From positions 1 through 64,000 of the IMG/VR virus record IMGVR_UViG_3300049491_000083: a stretch of DNA of 64,000 nt. One strand, given 5' to 3'. Below, piece after piece: positions 4,316 through 15,437 of this stretch (position 1 is its first letter; each line of letters begins with the position of its first letter). The position numbers and the translations under genes were made by a program. The notes below the pieces were generated by a model. It did no database searches. It saw only the letters and a list, made by a program, of their open reading frames with translations, and had not been told where the DNA came from. The DNA comes from a virus.

Positions 4316-5749
4316 TTAGGGATTAGTGTAGTTACGCTCAAGAGGAGCAACGAGGGCAACTGCATTTGTCTTTGACCTTTCAATTGTACCAGTTGCGCGA
4401 ACATACTGGCCGGTGTTGAGTCCGATAGCAATGACGGTGATCGCTGCATCGGTAGCGGCTGTTCTGCCACCCTGCACGTTTCCGTCGTAGTCGAATGTAA
4501 ATGTGACCGGTGTAGAAGAAATTGTACCGGTGATATCTGTGCCACTGGCATTCTTGACCAGAACAGCGCCAGACTCTCCCCAGTCATTTCCGGCTCCGGG
4601 TAGCGTAGTGAAGTACACCCAATACTTTGCCGCACCATCAGCAACAAGGTTGGAGTTGAAGGACAGGATCAAGTTCGCAGAATAAGGGTACTGACGCTGA
4701 GTGCCTGTGTTGTCGGTGAAGTATACTGAGTTCTGGTCAGCAATATCAAAGTTGGTGATGAACACACCAGTACCACCGCCAGCAGGGTTAGTCGCTGTAT
4801 CTGTGTACAGTGTATCGCCAACATAGTGCATGAGAGAGTCTGCGGTCTTACCAATGACGCTGACGCTGGCAGAGTTGATGCTGACAGCCTGACGCTCTGC
4901 ATACTGAACAAACTCATACGCTTCCTGCAAGGACTGGCCATTTGCATCGACTGTGATGCCGAAGTTGTACGATCCACCGACAAGACCAGATCTGGACTGC
5001 GGAGAAGCGTGGTAAGTGATGGTCATGCCAGAATATGGTGCTACGTCAGCAGGGTAGCCGGTACCAGAAGCCTTGATTGCTGTATCTGCTGCAACAATCT
5101 TGAGGTCGGCACCAGTAGAAATGGGGAATCGGTATACCTGTGCTGCCATGGTGGTAACACCAATGTCGGCCAGCGTTGACTTGCCGAACAACTGAGCCTG
5201 CTCACGGCCATAGAGTGTAAGCGAAGATCTGAGGTCGAAGTCGGAGCCTTCTGCGTAGATACCGTCGCCGTCGTCGTCGCGGAGGATCTGAATGGCCTGA
5301 TTGACCTGACCCTGCAACTGGAAGTTGATAGGTGACCCGGTGCCTTGGTAGTAGTACAACTGGTCATTGGATTCAATGGCACCCAGACCTACGATACCGG
5401 CCCATTGCTGGGTAACGTTGCCTCCGGTGTTTCTTACGGTCCATCCACCAGTACGAATCAGATAGCGACCGGTATCATTGAAAAAGTCCCATCCGTCAAC
5501 GAGTTCGAATGCCTCGTCCGTAATAGGGACCATTGGGAAGGGGAATGCTGCAAGGTTCTTGGTCAGTGGATCATTCTTCCACTGCTCCTTGAGGAACGAA
5601 TACAAAGCCTTGAGAGTCACACCGTCTGTGCTGAGATTTCCTACGACCACCAACTTGATCTTCTTGGTCGTTGTGTTGATGAAAACTTCCTGAGAGCCGT
5701 CATCTGCGGCAGAATCAGCAAGCAGATCCGGGTCTGTAATCAGGGCCAT
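4316..5749 (-). CDS. Large tail/baseplate structural protein
   Basis: A 477-residue protein starting MALITDPDLLADSAADDGSQEVF. The N-terminal ~120 residues set a pattern (hydrophobic strand, then 'ALYSFLKEQWKND') that I associate with phage virion proteins of unknown detail. The remainder is rich in Thr/Gly beta-strands. It heads a transcription unit behind the extended -10 promoter at 5791-5786 and has a good ribosome site (TTGGAGGAA). I cannot assign the exact virion position. Confidence 0.6.
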   Translation of the reverse strand: MALITDPDLLADSAADDGSQEVFINTTTKKIKLVVVGNLSTDGVTLKALYSFLKEQWKNDPLTKNLAAFPFPMVPITDEAFELVDGWDFFNDTGRYLIRTGGWTVRNTGGNVTQQWAGIVGLGAIESNDQLYYYQGTGSPINFQLQGQVNQAIQILRDDDGDGIYAEGSDFDLRSSLTLYGREQAQLFGKSTLADIGVTTMAAQVYRFPISTGADLKIVAADTAIKASGTGYPADVAPYSGMTITYHASPQSRSGLVGGSYNFGITVDANGQSLQEAYEFVQYAERQAVSINSASVSVIGKTADSLMHYVGDTLYTDTATNPAGGGTGVFITNFDIADQNSVYFTDNTGTQRQYPYSANLILSFNSNLVADGAAKYWVYFTTLPGAGNDWGESGAVLVKNASGTDITGTISSTPVTFTFDYDGNVQGGRTAATDAAITVIAIGLNTGQYVRATGTIERSKTNAVALVAPLERNYTNP

Positions 5750-5785
5750 GCATATTCCTCCAAGTGCCTTGCGGCTATTTCTTTA

Positions 5786-5795
5786 ATTATATCAT
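5786..5795 (-). promoter_or_regulatory. Extended -10 late-type promoter for the main tail operon
   Basis: Minus-strand TGATATAAT with -10 at 5791-5786, followed by TAAAGAAA, identical over 17 bases to the element at 778-773. There is no good -35 at 17 bp. It lies just inside the end of the upstream gene and gives a ~35 nt leader to the 477-residue structural gene. Confidence 0.55.
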
Positions 5796-5796
5796 G

Positions 5797-6138
5797 CTAA
5801 GGACCATAGGTTAACGTCAGATGGTCGTTCCAGACGTGCGTAAATGTTGCTGCTCCACCAGCCCAATCGACCGATGATCCGCCGACTGTCTCGGTGATTT
5901 TCTTCACTCTCCAGAGGGCTTGGCTTGCTGCCGTACCCGGCGCAGCCTCCCCGACGTATGTCACGCCAGAAACCGATGTGTCAATCTCAATATCGTACAC
6001 TTCATCCTCCGCTGCTACTTCTCTGATGATGGACTCGCTGACAGATACATTGACTCCATCACCCTGAACGACTACTCCGTATACTTCATCATATACGCTT
6101 ACTCGTACCGGGGACTCTTCGACAACTACCTTGGTCAT
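5797..6138 (-). CDS. Small putative structural protein
   Basis: A 113-residue, Val-rich beta-type protein (MTKVVVEESPVRVSVYDEVYGVVVQ) whose N-terminal half has repeated short strands. It overlaps the upstream gene by 4 bp (ATGA type). Similar Val-rich modules occur next to collagen-like fibre genes; its role is unknown. Confidence 0.5.
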   Translation of the reverse strand: MTKVVVEESPVRVSVYDEVYGVVVQGDGVNVSVSESIIREVAAEDEVYDIEIDTSVSGVTYVGEAAPGTAASQALWRVKKITETVGGSSVDWAGGAATFTHVWNDHLTLTYGP

Positions 6139-8224: not shown

Positions 8225-8296
8225 CGGATTGTAGGGGAATGGTACCCCGTCTGTTTTGGGAACAGAAGGTCGTGAGTTCGATTCTCACCTATCCGA
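8225..8296 (+). tRNA. tRNA-Pro(TGG)
   Basis: Cloverleaf with anticodon loop TTTGGGA and T arm GTGAG-TTCGATT-CTCAC. The acceptor has one T-T mismatch. First tRNA of cluster 1; no encoded CCA. Confidence 0.85.
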
Positions 8297-8306
8297 CGCA
8301 AAGCAC

Positions 8307-8380
8307 GCAAATGTGGTGAAATGGTATCACACTACCTTGCCAAGGTCGTAGCGCGAGTTCGATTCTCGTCATTTGCTCCA
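8307..8380 (+). tRNA. tRNA-Gly(GCC), CCA encoded
   Basis: Acceptor GCAAATG/CATTTGC, anticodon loop TTGCCAA, T arm with TTCGATT loop. The anticodon stem has one mismatch. TCCA is present in the DNA at 8377-8380. Confidence 0.85.
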
Positions 8381-8401
8381 CTAAATACATAAGGATTGAT
8401 T

Positions 8402-8608
8402 ATGACAACTCAGGCACAACAGATCGCAGCACTTCTCGGTGAAGTAACCTTGCAGAACGAGGCCATTGGTACGCTCCAAGAGCGTATCCGGGTACTTGAG
8501 GCGCAAGTTAATCCGCCAGTAGATCCAGAGCAGGAATTGCGTCGGGCAAACAGGGAGGCTGAGCGTGCAGCACGCAGAGCAGCCCGTGAAGCAGGACAGT
8601 CAGTTTAA
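8402..8608 (+). CDS. Small coiled-coil protein, unknown function
   Basis: A 68-residue protein placed between tRNA genes. The ATG at 8402 is chosen over TTG 8396 because AAGG lies 7 bp ahead. Residues ~8-35 form leucine/isoleucine heptads, then an Arg/Ala/Glu-rich helix (REAERAARRAAREA). It may bind RNA through the basic helix, but this is a guess. Confidence 0.6.
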   Translation: MTTQAQQIAALLGEVTLQNEAIGTLQERIRVLEAQVNPPVDPEQELRRANREAERAARRAAREAGQSV

Positions 8609-8610
8609 TT

Positions 8611-8684
8611 TATCTCCGTAGTTCAGAGGAAGAATGCTTCGCTACGAACGAAGTGGTCGCTGGTTCGAATCCAGCCGGGGATAC
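8611..8684 (+). tRNA. tRNA-Arg(ACG)
   Basis: Acceptor TATCTCC/GGGGATA, anticodon stem CTTCG/CGAAG with loop CTACGAA, T arm GCTGG/CCAGC. Confidence 0.88.
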
Positions 8685-8687
8685 AAG

Positions 8688-8816
8688 ATGAATCACTGTC
8701 CAGACTGTCACTCAATCAAGAATAGTTTTCACAAGCGTTCATGCACACGAACATGCCTTGACTGTGGAGCAGTATGGAAAGTTGTTCATGTTCTACCCGC
8801 ACCTATATTTAAATAA
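8688..8816 (+). CDS. Tiny zinc-ribbon protein between two tRNAs
   Basis: A 42-residue ORF from ATG 8688. The longer frame upstream would cross tRNA-Arg, so it is rejected. Four cysteines in two CxxC-type pairs (CPDC and CLDC) predict a zinc ribbon. It starts 3 bp after tRNA-Arg and its stop abuts tRNA-Ser, so it would be translated from a processed tRNA spacer. No clear ribosome site. Confidence 0.5.
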   Translation: MNHCPDCHSIKNSFHKRSCTRTCLDCGAVWKVVHVLPAPIFK

Positions 8817-8901
8817 GGAAGATTGCCAGAGTGGTTATTGGAGCGGTTTGCTAAACCGTGGTGGGGAAGCCTGCCCGTAGGTTCGAATCCTGCATCTTCC
8901 G
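8817..8901 (+). tRNA. tRNA-Ser(GCT)
   Basis: Class II tRNA with long variable arm. Acceptor GGAAGAT/ATCTTCC, anticodon loop TTGCTAA, discriminator G. Confidence 0.92.
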
Positions 8902-8905
8902 CCGC

Positions 8906-8976
8906 GTGCCCTTGTCCGAATGGCAAGGTGACAGGCTGCAACCCTGTTTATGCCGGTTCGAATCCGGCAGGGCACT
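8906..8976 (+). tRNA. tRNA-Cys(GCA)
   Basis: Acceptor GTGCCCT/AGGGCAC, anticodon stem ACAGG/CCTGT with loop CTGCAAC, T arm GCCGG/CCGGC. Confidence 0.92.
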
Positions 8977-8998
8977 CAAAGAAAGTTCCACAAAAGAC

Positions 8999-9027
8999 TT
9001 GACAACTACATAGCACTACAGTATCAT
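8999..9027 (+). promoter_or_regulatory. Promoter of the Y-RNA-like array (TTGACA-N17-TATCAT)
   Basis: -35 TTGACA 8999-9004, exact 17-bp spacer, -10 TATCAT 9022-9027. Elsewhere in this window a 6-bp gap from -10 to the start codon marks many leaderless genes. The same gap here puts the first transcribed base at 9034, exactly the first base of the stem of unit 1. Confidence 0.75.
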
Positions 9028-9033
9028 TGAACT

Positions 9034-9106
9034 TAAGCGAGTCGGATTGAATGGGTTATCCTACATATGAGTAAAATATATCCCATCCATAAAGCATATT
9101 CGCTTA
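9034..9106 (+). ncRNA. Y-RNA-like unit 1 (minimal form)
   Basis: Outer stem TAAGCGA (9034-9040)/TCGCTTA (9100-9106). 5' internal-loop motif GTCGGATTG at 9041-9049. Inner stem GGA...TGGG/CCCATCC. AT-rich terminal loop of ~25 nt without a T arm. At 73 nt it is the shortest and lacks the tRNA-like domain. Confidence 0.72.
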
Positions 9107-9114
9107 CAGACTTT

Positions 9115-9252
9115 TGAACGAGTCGATTGTCAACGATAATCTATGGAGAAGCAGGCCAATAGTTCAAAAAGCGCCTGCACAGCACAGTTACACAACCGGG
9201 TAGTTAGCCAACAAAAGGCCAGCCCGTTCGTTGCCTGCAACATATTCGTTCA
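9115..9252 (+). ncRNA. Y-RNA-like unit 2
   Basis: Outer stem TGAACGA (9115-9121)/TCGTTCA (9246-9252). Motif GTCGATTG. Inner stem CAACG (9131-9135)/CGTTG (9229-9233), plus TTG/CAA. The distal region has a GCAGGC/GCCTGC hairpin (9151-9156/9173-9178). It also has a CGGGTAGTT...CAAAA stretch resembling the D-arm side of unit 5. No clear T arm. Confidence 0.7.
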
Positions 9253-9261
9253 CAAAACTTA

Positions 9262-9362
9262 ATATGGGTCGAATAGGATCACGGTTATCGCGGTAAGCAG
9301 GGCCAACAAATTCCTGCCTCAGGGTTCAATTCCCTACCCGTTCCTAACTTATACATCCATAT
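9262..9362 (+). ncRNA. Y-RNA-like unit 3 with tRNA-like domain
   Basis: Outer stem ATATGGG (9262-9268)/TCCATAT (9356-9362). Motif GTCGAATAG. Inner stems TAGGA/TCCTA (9274-9278/9342-9346) and ACGG/CCGT (9281-9284/9338-9341). Distal arms: GCAGG/CCTGC with an 11-nt loop (9297-9317) and a T arm AGGG-TTCAATT-CCCT (9321-9335). Only this unit has a different outer-stem sequence family. Confidence 0.72.
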
Positions 9363-9367
9363 CAGAC

Positions 9368-9475
9368 TTGACGAGCCGGATTGTTTCGGTTATCATTGCC
9401 AAAATTAATGAGGCAAGGTTCGATTCCTTCCTGTACGGGGTGGCCCCCATCCGATTCACAAAGCATGTTCGTCAA
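9368..9475 (+). ncRNA. Y-RNA-like unit 4 with tRNA-like domain
   Basis: Outer stem TTGACGA (9368-9374)/TCGTCAA (9469-9475). Motif GCCGGATTG. Inner stem CGGAT/ATCCG (9377-9381/9449-9453). Arm TTGCC/GGCAA with an 11-nt loop (9396-9416). T arm AAGG-TTCGATT-CCTT (9415-9429). Arm order and the 11-nt loop match unit 3. Confidence 0.72.
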
Positions 9476-9481
9476 CACAAC

Positions 9482-9619
9482 TTAATACGAGTCGAATTGA
9501 AGTCGATTATCCAATTCAAATGGGGTTATATCGGTTCGAATCCGGTCCCGTCCACCATGGGCGGGTAGTTTAATGGCAAAACACCTAAAATTCGATTTCT
9601 ACTAATATATTCGTGTTAA
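9482..9619 (+). ncRNA. Y-RNA-like unit 5 with circularly permuted tRNA module
   Basis: Outer stem of 9 bp (9482-9490/9611-9619, one G-U). Motif GTCGAATTG. Inner stem CGAATT/AATTCG (9493-9498/9589-9594). Inside, in order: T arm (9530-9546, loop TTCGAAT); acceptor 3' strand CCCGTCC (9547-9553); linker ACCAT ending in what looks like ACCA; acceptor 5' strand GGGCGGG (9559-9565 with one shift); then D arm GTTT-AATGGCA-AAAC (9568-9582). Acceptor strands pair 7/7 if G3-U70 is allowed. Confidence 0.78.
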
Positions 9620-9626
9620 CTACAAT

Positions 9627-9639
9627 GCCCCACAGGGGC
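9627..9639 (+). other. Small GC hairpin between array and Ro60 gene
   Basis: GCCCC-ACA-GGGGC, without a T run, between the last unit and the Ro60 ribosome site. It could be a processing or stability element separating ncRNA from mRNA. Confidence 0.4.
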
Positions 9640-9653
9640 CGAAAGGAAAGAAA

Positions 9654-11255
9654 ATGTCTACTGCACTAAAGAATGTTTCATTCAAGAACACACAGCAGAC
9701 CGTTCAGGCACGTCCTGATCAGGTTAAGAACTCTGCTGGTGGGTACGTATTCCAGACCGCAGACAAGGATCGCCTAGAGCGCTTCCTGATCATCGGTACT
9801 GACGGCGGTACCTACTACGCATCTGAGTCAAAGATCACCAACGACAACACCAAGTTTATCGTTGAACTGATCCGTTGTAATGAGGATCTTGTTCGGGATA
9901 CCCTTGTTGACGTGTCGGTCAATGGTCGTGCGTACAAGAATTCCCCTGCACTCTTCACCCTTGCCCTGCTTTTCGTAGAGGGCACCAACAAGGCTGCCGC
10001 AAAGGATGCTTTGCAGAAGGTTGCTAGGACTTCAACACATCTTTTTGAGTTCGCTCAGTACATTGAGAACCTTGGTGGCTGGGGACGCGCAAAGCGTTCT
10101 GCCGTTGCCGAGTGGTACACGTCTAAGGAAACTGACAATCTGGCCTACCAGTTCGTCAAGTACCGTCAGCGTGACGGCTGGACTCACCGCGACCTTATGC
10201 GACTGTCTCACCCCGTTGGTATCGAAGCCAACACCGCCAACTTTGCCCTAGGCAAGGATCACGGTATTGCGCCTCGTATCATTAGCGGATTTGAGATTGT
10301 CCAGCAGGCTGAGAATGTCCAGCAGGTTCTCAACGCCCTGTCGTCTTTCAAGGATCTGCCATGGGAAGCAATTCCTACCCAGTTCCTTAAGGACCCCAAG
10401 GTGTGGAAGGCCCTGTTCTACAACGATCAGTTGAAGGGTCAGGCCCTTATCCGTAACATCGTCAGGCTCTCACGCAACGGTGCTTTCAATGACCTTGCGT
10501 TTGCGGCTGACTACGCAGCACGCCTTACCGATGTAGAAATGATCCGTAAGACTCGTCTGCACCCCGTTAACTACCTTAACGCTCTTGTGACATACACAGA
10601 GGGTCAGGTACCACGGGACGGTTGGGGCACTGGTTGGGGATACCGGATTTCCCGCAAGATCGATTGGACCCCTCGTGGGCCTCTCGTGGATGCGCTGAAC
10701 GAAGGCTTCCACCAGTCATTCAAGTTCGTAGAGCCTGCTAACAAGCGGACACTCCTAGGAGTTGACGTGTCAGGTTCTATGGCATCAGCAGCAATGGGCA
10801 CCGACCTGTCGTGTGCACAGGTGGCTGGCGCTATGGCAATGACCATTGCCCGAACTGAGCCTGCCTACGAGATTCGTGGATTCGCGGGTACATTTGTTGA
10901 TCTTGGCATCACCGCCAAGACGGGTCTGTCTGATGCAATGAACAAGGTCCAGAGGGCCAACTTCGGAACTACAGACTGCTCGCTGCCTATGCAGTACGCA
11001 CTTCAAAACAAGTTGGAGATTGATACGTTCGTGGTGATCACGGACAACGAGACTTACGCAGGTAGGCCTCATCCGTATCAGGCTCTTAAGAACTACCGTG
11101 ACAGGACTGGCATCGACGCACGGCTTGCCGTGCTTGGTGTTGCCTCAAACGGGTTCACTATCGCTGATCCCAAGGATCGTGGTATGATGGACTTTGTTGG
11201 ATTTGACAGCAATGCACCCAAGGTGCTTGCAGACTTCTCCGCAGGTAGGCTATAA
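9654..11255 (+). CDS. rsr: Ro60-like TROVE/vWA RNA-binding protein
   Basis: A 533-residue protein. Residues ~20-340 fit the TROVE ring of HEAT-like helices (VKYRQRDGWTHRDLMRLSHP is characteristic), and the C-terminal ~170 residues are a von Willebrand A domain. The metal-binding (MIDAS) residues are visible: D371-x-S373-x-S375 (GVDVSGSM), T439/T440, D464 (VVITDNETY). Bacterial Ro60 (Rsr) binds Y RNAs on its outer surface and RNA 3' ends in its central hole, helping RNA quality control or degradation by PNPase. Here it directly follows five Y-RNA-like units. GGAAAG ribosome site. Size equals cellular Ro60 (~530). Confidence 0.95.
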   Translation: MSTALKNVSFKNTQQTVQARPDQVKNSAGGYVFQTADKDRLERFLIIGTDGGTYYASESKITNDNTKFIVELIRCNEDLVRDTLVDVSVNGRAYKNSPALFTLALLFVEGTNKAAAKDALQKVARTSTHLFEFAQYIENLGGWGRAKRSAVAEWYTSKETDNLAYQFVKYRQRDGWTHRDLMRLSHPVGIEANTANFALGKDHGIAPRIISGFEIVQQAENVQQVLNALSSFKDLPWEAIPTQFLKDPKVWKALFYNDQLKGQALIRNIVRLSRNGAFNDLAFAADYAARLTDVEMIRKTRLHPVNYLNALVTYTEGQVPRDGWGTGWGYRISRKIDWTPRGPLVDALNEGFHQSFKFVEPANKRTLLGVDVSGSMASAAMGTDLSCAQVAGAMAMTIARTEPAYEIRGFAGTFVDLGITAKTGLSDAMNKVQRANFGTTDCSLPMQYALQNKLEIDTFVVITDNETYAGRPHPYQALKNYRDRTGIDARLAVLGVASNGFTIADPKDRGMMDFVGFDSNAPKVLADFSAGRL

Positions 11256-14977: not shown

Positions 14978-15126
14978 AGCAATTCCCTAGGGACCATGAC
15001 CCCATCCTCATTGCAGCAGAAACGGCATGGGCAGAAGGCGACAGAGAAGAGTATACTAGACTAGTCAATCGTTGGTGTAAAGAGAACGGCTATACATTCA
15101 ACGGTTGGCGCTGGACGCGGGGATGA
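14974..15126 (+). CDS. Hypothetical 50-residue protein overlapping tmRNA
   Basis: ATG 14974 overlaps the upstream stop (ATGA). Trp/Arg-rich C-terminus (NGYTFNGWRWTRG). The last eight bases lie in the tmRNA 5' end. Confidence 0.55.
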   Translation: MKQFPRDHDPILIAAETAWAEGDREEYTRLVNRWCKENGYTFNGWRWTRG

Positions 15127-15420
15127 AAGGTTTCGACCTTGCGGGAAGGTATCAGCAGTACCACAACACAACAATAAATGCAAACACACAAACCGCATTC
15201 GCCCTAGCAGCATGAGGGCCGTGGGGCCACTCCATAGGAACAGAAAGTGGCATGGAAAGATATCCTTTGCATTAATGTAAAGGGTAAGTTACACCGTCGG
15301 GGATATCCCCCGCAAACGCAACAAACACAAATAGTATGACCGTTGGTTGTGCTTTTTGTGGCTACAAAGACGCTGATATTGGAAGGCAATGGGACCGGGG
15401 TTCGATTCCCCGCATCTCCA
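15119..15420 (+). ncRNA. ssrA: tmRNA (transfer-messenger RNA)
   Basis: The 5' end GGGGATG followed by GGTTTCGACC is the standard tmRNA signature. The 3' end has T arm CGGGG-TTCGATT-CCCCG (15396-15412), then CATCTCC pairing with GGGGATG over 7 bp (one G-U), then discriminator A and CA. The likely tag frame runs 15180-15212 and encodes ANTQTAFALAA, then TGA. tmRNA rescues stalled ribosomes and marks the product for ClpXP; the AFALAA end is a classic tag. At 302 nt it is slightly shorter than typical (~350). The resume codon GCA is inferred. Confidence 0.88.
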
Positions 15421-15437
15421 CAACGAAAGGATAGGCA

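What the first reader, a model, noticed from the sequence alone, without database searches (positions are those of the whole stretch)
9034..9619. Five tandem Y-RNA-like units directly upstream of a phage Ro60 gene
Each unit has a 7-9 bp terminal stem built from different bases (so pairing is conserved while sequence is not), then a shared asymmetric internal loop with GTCGRATTG on one side and an ATTCG-type strand on the other, and an inner helix. Stem partners: 9034-9040/9100-9106, 9115-9121/9246-9252, 9262-9268/9356-9362, 9368-9374/9469-9475, 9482-9490/9611-9619. Linkers are only 5-9 nt. Single bacterial Y RNAs beside Rsr genes are established, and I recall reports of Y RNAs in mycobacteriophages; a five-unit polycistronic array with one promoter would be new to me. 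It may load several Ro60 rings or give Ro60 different RNA partners.
Basis: partly seen in the sequence, partly recalled or inferred. Interest (0 to 1): 0.95.

Follow-up and report, generated by a model that had tools for sequence, protein, structure and literature searches.

The report
Tandem phage Y RNA gene array
Just upstream of its Ro60 gene this bacterial virus carries five small-RNA genes in a row, a real array of "Y RNAs" (the RNA partners of the Ro60 protein); such arrays turn out to be common next to Ro60 genes in other phages and in bacteria, so this is a good new example rather than a new kind of system.

Summary
The five units at 9034-9619 are real. A covariance model built from 62 units of other phages, with no window sequence in that alignment, finds all five (E 9e-11 to 2e-5); the next best site in 64 kb has E=0.32. 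Unit 5 matches Rfam YrlA (30.9 bits, E=1e-4, below the curated cut-off of 69) and contains a circularly permuted tRNA-like domain. The neighbouring gene is a genuine Ro60. The Y RNA interpretation is supported. The array form is not exceptional: the model finds several units beside Ro60 in most phage and bacterial loci examined (Trina has 12 in its genome; 13 of 73 bacterial-collection loci have tandem runs of 4-5), none annotated as Y RNA in the phage records I opened. Phage YrlA RNAs are already reported. A by-product: compact units beside bacterial Ro60 genes pass the curated threshold of the nematode sbRNA family (animal Y RNA homologues), although a review calls bacterial and vertebrate Y RNAs non-homologous. 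Expression, Ro60 binding and processing remain untested.

The parts
8999..9027 (+). sigma-70-like promoter TTGACA-N17-TATCAT; predicted start about 9034, the first base of unit 1
   Evidence: 11 of 12 matches; chance rate not negligible
9034..9106 (+). Y RNA unit 1, minimal type: P1 9034-9042/9098-9106, P2 9049-9055/9082-9088, UUAUC loop, no tRNA-like part
   Evidence: R2 49.3 bits, E 8.8e-11
9115..9252 (+). Y RNA unit 2: P1 9115-9123/9244-9252, P2 9131-9136/9228-9233, large two-hairpin top; AUAAUC in place of UUAUC
   Evidence: R2 35.6 bits, E 4.2e-7
9262..9362 (+). Y RNA unit 3: P1 9262-9269/9355-9362, bulged P2 9274-9284/9338-9346, T-arm-like hairpin 9321-9335
   Evidence: R2 29.2 bits, E 2.1e-5; T-arm rule
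9368..9475 (+). Y RNA unit 4: P1 9368-9376/9467-9475, short P2 9386-9389/9451-9454, T-arm-like hairpin 9415-9429
   Evidence: R2 40.5 bits, E 2.0e-8; T-arm rule
9482..9619 (+). Y RNA unit 5, YrlA type: P1 9482-9492/9609-9619, P2 9499-9506/9592-9599, T-arm 9530-9546, acceptor-like stem 9547-9565 closed by a loop, D-arm-like 9568-9582
   Evidence: R2 42.7 bits, E 5.0e-9; Rfam RF02553 30.9 bits, E 1.1e-4, below GA 69
9654..11255 (+). Ro60 (Rsr) protein, 533 aa, TROVE plus vWA_Ro60
   Evidence: Pfam; D. radiodurans Rsr 2NVO E 2.9e-101 and vertebrate Ro60 1YVP E 1.3e-94

Best explanation
The array is a phage Ro60/Y RNA operon. One transcript starting near 9034 carries five Y RNAs followed by the Ro60 message. 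Each unit folds locally; P1 and the G[U/C]CGRAUG/AACAUA asymmetric loop form the Ro60-binding handle, and the tops differ: unit 1 is a bare handle, units 3 and 4 carry a tRNA T-arm mimic, unit 5 the full permuted-tRNA YrlA domain. The RNAs are cut apart in the AU-rich linkers and each is held by a Ro60 ring. They then gate the ring or couple it to other RNA machinery (host PNPase in the D. radiodurans model, tRNA-handling enzymes through the tRNA mimic), helping the phage handle or degrade structured and damaged RNA, tRNAs in particular, during infection. Shown by computation: the five units, their shared covarying core, the YrlA-type top of unit 5, the Ro60 gene and the recurrence of such arrays. 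Inferred: transcription, processing, Ro60 binding, PNPase coupling and the benefit to the phage. The stated confidence is for the five units being Y RNAs that serve the adjacent Ro60; for the PNPase/RNA-decay role in particular it is about 0.5.
For: Covariation across 13 compact units: score 0.597 against 0.240 in shuffles, 0/500, at most 0.15 when slid; 62 units: 0.693 against 0.262, 0/500. Independent model hits on all five units. Matches in Ro60 loci lie on the Ro60 strand: 117 of 117 and 244 of 245, although both strands were searched. Model hits in 16 of 16 Ro60-carrying phage records, none at E<1 in 917 kb of six comparison phages, T4 and KVP40 among them. YrlA matches in most relatives' loci scanned. 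T-arm mimic in 163 of 323 units against 0.05% of shuffled ones. Units also lie downstream of Ro60 or far from it (BlueNGold, Phabba, Atu_ph07), which fits RNAs acting in trans. RYPER model: Y RNA tethers Rsr to PNPase (PMC4726728).
Against: No expression or binding data. Unit 5's YrlA score is below Rfam's gathering score, and Rfam places no other window unit. The free minimum-energy fold of the whole precursor does not form P1 in units 1-4. The seed units were chosen by a pairing descriptor, so covariation counts are somewhat inflated by selection. No PNPase search was made; host PNPase is assumed.
Confidence: 0.85

Rival explanations
1. Anti-defence decoys: the tRNA-like tops chiefly serve as bait or competitive inhibitors of host anticodon nucleases, Ro60 stabilising the bait, in a phage with 32 tRNA genes and a tmRNA.
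For: T-arm mimics in units 3-5; 32 tRNAs and a tmRNA in the window; competitive inhibition of the nuclease by YrlA was proposed for Salmonella (PMC7790460); phage tRNAs are proposed to evade tRNA-targeting host defences (PMC10264068, title and abstract).
Against: Units 1 and 2 have no T-arm mimic; the tRNA-like domain has no anticodon arm (its place is taken by the Y stem), so it is a poor anticodon-nuclease substrate; bacterial genomes outside phages carry the same arrays.
Confidence: 0.2
2. Cis-acting leader: the five structures regulate expression of the downstream Ro60 gene rather than acting as free RNAs.
For: Position directly upstream of Ro60 with no + strand terminator-like site between.
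Against: Same units occur downstream of Ro60 (BlueNGold L047, Chloroflexi loci) and tens of kilobases away (Phabba 91-94 kb, Atu_ph07); Ro60 binding of such RNAs is established in bacteria (PMC4726728).
Confidence: 0.07
3. Decayed tRNA genes of the phage tRNA cluster.
For: T-arm-like and acceptor-like sequences in units 3-5; tRNA genes end at 8977 just upstream.
Against: ARAGORN calls none there; P1/P2 covary across phages; units 1 and 2 have no T-arm; the tRNA parts of unit 5 are in permuted order.
Confidence: 0.02

Closest known systems
YrlA, bacterial Y RNA-like RNA (RF02553)
   Same: Unit 5: lower Y stem, then T-arm, closed acceptor-like stem and D-arm, next to Ro60; phages with YrlA are mentioned in the literature (PMC7765460 citing Sim and Wolin 2018)
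   Different: 30.9 bits against a gathering score of 69; carries UUAUC; preceded by four units that lack the full tRNA mimic
Deinococcus radiodurans Y RNA (RF01053) and the Rsr/Y RNA/PNPase complex RYPER
   Same: Ro60 gene next to Y RNA; similar GGYCGAAG...CGGUUA core in the model consensus
   Different: Only a chance-level score for unit 4 (15.1 bits, E 9.2); PNPase coupling unknown here
Nematode sbRNAs (RF01656) and vertebrate Y RNAs (RF00019)
   Same: Same two-stem plan, GGUCCGGA/CAACUUGACC asymmetric loop and UUAUC at the 5' end of the loop (alignment; UUAUC motif described in PMC4450293); related bacterial units pass the RF01656 gathering score
   Different: The window's own five units do not match these models at E<=10
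Y RNA arrays of other phages and bacteria
   Same: Trina 12 units, Gilson record 6, BlueNGold 7, L052 five in tandem just before a 66%-identical Ro60, Arachnia and Nocardia four in tandem
   Different: Unit number, order and tops differ; many phages interleave units with tRNA genes and small ORFs

Membership tests
Bacterial/phage Y RNA | Encoded next to a Ro60 (Rsr) gene | tested here: met
   Ro60 at 9654-11255: TROVE plus vWA_Ro60, 2NVO E 2.9e-101
Bacterial/phage Y RNA | Conserved lower stem with asymmetric internal loop, shared across relatives by covariation | tested here: met
Bacterial/phage Y RNA | Expressed as a discrete RNA of about 70-140 nt | not testable with these tools
   needs RNA from infected cells
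Bacterial/phage Y RNA | Bound by Ro60 through the lower stem | not testable with these tools
   needs pull-down or gel shift
YrlA (RF02553), unit 5 | Rfam covariance model score at or above gathering (69 bits) | tested here: not met
   30.9 bits, E 1.1e-4 in 691 bases; the relatives' YrlA-type units scanned also fall short, best 52.1
YrlA (RF02553), unit 5 | T-arm, acceptor-like stem and D-arm in permuted order on top of the Y stem | tested here: met
   full-length model alignment 1-114; T-arm and acceptor-like stem predicted with high pairing probability, D-arm only about 0.25
Deinococcus Y RNA (RF01053) | Significant Rfam match | tested here: not met
   unit 4, 15.1 bits, E 9.2
Animal Y RNA / sbRNA (RF00019, RF01656) | Significant Rfam match by the window units | tested here: not met
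   no match at E<=10 in 8970-9660; relatives do match
RYPER-type complex | Y RNA tethers Ro60 to PNPase | not testable with these tools
   needs co-purification

The most novel reading that the evidence does not exclude
Phage and bacterial Y RNA units, these five among them, are true homologues of animal Y RNAs and nematode sbRNAs (same stems, asymmetric loop and UUAUC motif), so Ro60 and its RNA share one ancestry across bacteria, phages and animals; the array gives one Ro60 a set of RNA adaptors with interchangeable tops.
Probability: 0.35. Interest if true: 0.75.

Novelty: new member of a known kind. Interest (0 to 1): 0.5.

Why it matters
It gives Ro60-carrying phages, many of them cultured on laboratory strains of Streptomyces and Mycobacterium smegmatis, a precise, unannotated set of Y RNA genes, and a covariance model that finds them where Rfam's curated thresholds do not. 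Varied tops on one Ro60 handle let one test whether Y RNAs act as exchangeable adaptors. The shared core with nematode sbRNAs bears on the published view that bacterial Y RNAs are not homologous to vertebrate ones.

Tried and rejected
A strict GTCGRATTG-like plus TTATC pattern within 14 nt missed most relatives and was replaced by a stem-aware descriptor and covariance models. RtcB was sought because Salmonella pairs it with Rsr and Y RNA: absent from the window's record and from nine other Ro60 phage records (the only match is elsewhere in the bacterial assembly that holds L052). ACUU/AACUUAA before units as a processing signal: ACUU enriched in phages (32% against 4% background) but weak in bacteria (8% against 2%), left open. 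The second promoter-like site at 9368-9396 lies inside unit 4 and is made by its own stem and UUAUC, so it is disregarded. Coding potential of the array: the one listed ORF, 9368-9568 (66 aa), overlaps units 4 and 5 and is regarded as spurious. Chen et al. 2014 (RNA), the key paper on widespread bacterial Y RNAs, is not held, so its phage examples could not be checked; that multiple Y RNAs per species were already noted there is recalled, not read. No near DNA relative of the phage at 30000-54000 in the phage collection.

Full report
What is there. The window is part of a 76,008-base virus record from IMG/VR. Its Ro60 is closest to those of Streptomyces phages (60-64% identity in the best phage records and viral contigs) and 66% identical to one on a contig binned with a cyanobacterial MAG (L052), which looks like a misbinned phage contig because it carries about twenty tRNA genes in 9.6 kb. 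The gene at 9654-11255 is a complete Ro60 with TROVE and vWA domains. Upstream lie five tRNA genes (8225-8977), a promoter-like site (8999-9027) and the five units (9034-9619).

Checking the stems. Each 5' strand pairs best with its own partner. Single-sequence statistics are modest: unit z-scores -1.0 to -2.4, and unit 3's stem is not significant on its own. Free folding of the whole precursor breaks units 1-4, but with pairing limited to 150 nt all five outer stems form, at a cost of under 4 kcal/mol.

Comparative evidence. A descriptor found units of the same plan beside Ro60 in phages of Streptomyces, Rhodococcus, Gordonia and Mycobacterium. Thirteen compact units aligned with plain MAFFT show strong covariation in P1 and P2. 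Model R1 from these found more units; R2 was built from 62 of them, without window sequence, and recovered all five window units with nothing else below E 0.3. Three controls do not depend on how seeds were chosen: matches in Ro60 loci lie on the Ro60 strand (117 of 117 and 244 of 245); none at E<1 in 917 kb of six comparison phages; and 16 of 16 Ro60 phage records have matches. Two limits: seeds were selected for pairing, and R1 contained unit 1.

Anatomy. Common core: P1 ending in G-rich base pairs; 5' loop strand CGRAUG; P2; UUAUC; variable top; P2'; AACAUA or AACAUG; P1'. Tops: unit 1 none; unit 2 two hairpins; units 3 and 4 a T-arm-like hairpin (AGGG-TTCAATT-CCCT; AAGG-TTCGATT-CCTT); unit 5 T-arm, a 7-bp acceptor-like stem closed by ACCAU, and a weakly predicted D-arm, in permuted order with the Y stem in place of the anticodon arm. 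Rfam's YrlA model aligns over its full length to unit 5 (30.9 bits, E 1.1e-4; gathering 69). By a simple stem-loop rule, 163 of 323 units in all have a T-arm mimic, against 0.05% of shuffled ones.

Not a rare arrangement. At E<=0.01, 25 of 39 phage loci have two or more units near Ro60; at a looser cut-off whole genomes hold up to 12 (Trina). Of 80 loci from the bacterial genome collection, 73 have units and 59 have two or more; 13 have tandem runs of four or five with gaps of at most 40 nt, among them Arachnia, Nocardia, Micropruina and L052 (five in tandem just before Ro60, like the window). None is annotated as a Y RNA in the phage records opened; Trina's array overlaps a pseudo 'tRNA-OTHER'. 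Of 15 such bacterial-collection loci scanned at Rfam's gathering thresholds, none reached the YrlA or Deinococcus Y RNA threshold and one reached a nematode sbRNA family.

Animal-type similarity. Units in Chloroflexi loci (L120 42.9 bits, L086 43.5) and four units of an unclassified bacterial MAG (L076, 39.6-50.8 bits) pass the gathering score (38) of RF01656, nematode sbRNA. L076's other long ORFs appear bacterial by eye. A viral contig (L030) reaches 33.2 bits with RF01656 and 31.7 with RF00019, vertebrate Y RNA, both just below threshold. The aligned sequence includes GGGCCGGAGU...AUGGGUUAUC and CAACUUGCCC, and UUAUC at the 5' end of the loop is the motif described for sbRNAs (PMC4450293). 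A review calls bacterial Y RNAs not homologous to vertebrate ones (PMC4726728). Convergence on what Ro60 binds is an alternative I cannot exclude. The window's own units do not match these models.

Mechanism. In D. radiodurans, Y RNA tethers Rsr to PNPase and gates RNA entry (PMC4726728). In Salmonella, Rsr and Y RNAs have been suggested to act in tRNA decay, or YrlA to inhibit an anticodon nuclease (PMC7790460). I favour a phage Ro60 supplied with several exchangeable adaptors for RNA quality control or decay in infected cells; the decoy idea is the main rival. Transcription, processing, binding and benefit are inferred.

Novelty. Y RNAs beside Ro60, YrlA's tRNA mimicry and YrlA in phages are known. 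The general array pattern and the animal-type similarity raise the interest to moderate.

Noticed in passing
L076:3729-3885 and 5719-5864; L086:5679-5744; L120:5644-5709: Compact Y RNA units beside bacterial Ro60 genes pass the Rfam gathering score of the nematode sbRNA family RF01656 (39.6-50.8 bits against 38).
   Followed up: partly
L030:2503-2614: Unit in a viral contig scores 31.7 bits with vertebrate Y_RNA (RF00019) and 33.2 with RF01656, both just below the gathering score of 38.
   Followed up: partly
L045 (Rhodococcus phage Trina) 1518-2944: Nine Y RNA units in this stretch (12 in the genome); an annotated pseudo tRNA-OTHER at 2676-2884 overlaps two of them and is probably a misannotated Y RNA.
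   Followed up: partly
Phabba NC_054714 91376-93973; Atu_ph07 NC_042013 446654-446720 and 467020-467087: Y RNA units far from the Ro60 gene, in Phabba inside the tRNA cluster.
   Followed up: no
window linkers before 9034, 9115, 9262, 9368, 9482: ACTT, or AACTTAA before units 1, 3 and 5, recurs just 5' of or at the start of each unit; ACTT enriched about 8-fold before phage units, possibly a processing site.
   Followed up: partly
window 15119-15421 and 8225-29310: The phage carries a tmRNA (tag ANTQTAFALAA) and 32 tRNA genes, two of them with an A-starting anticodon (Arg acg, Thr agt).
   Followed up: no
L052 (contig CAINGU010000031.1): Contig in a cyanobacterial MAG with about twenty tRNA genes, a 66% identical Ro60 and a five-unit array: probably a misbinned phage contig, closest Ro60 relative seen.
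   Followed up: no
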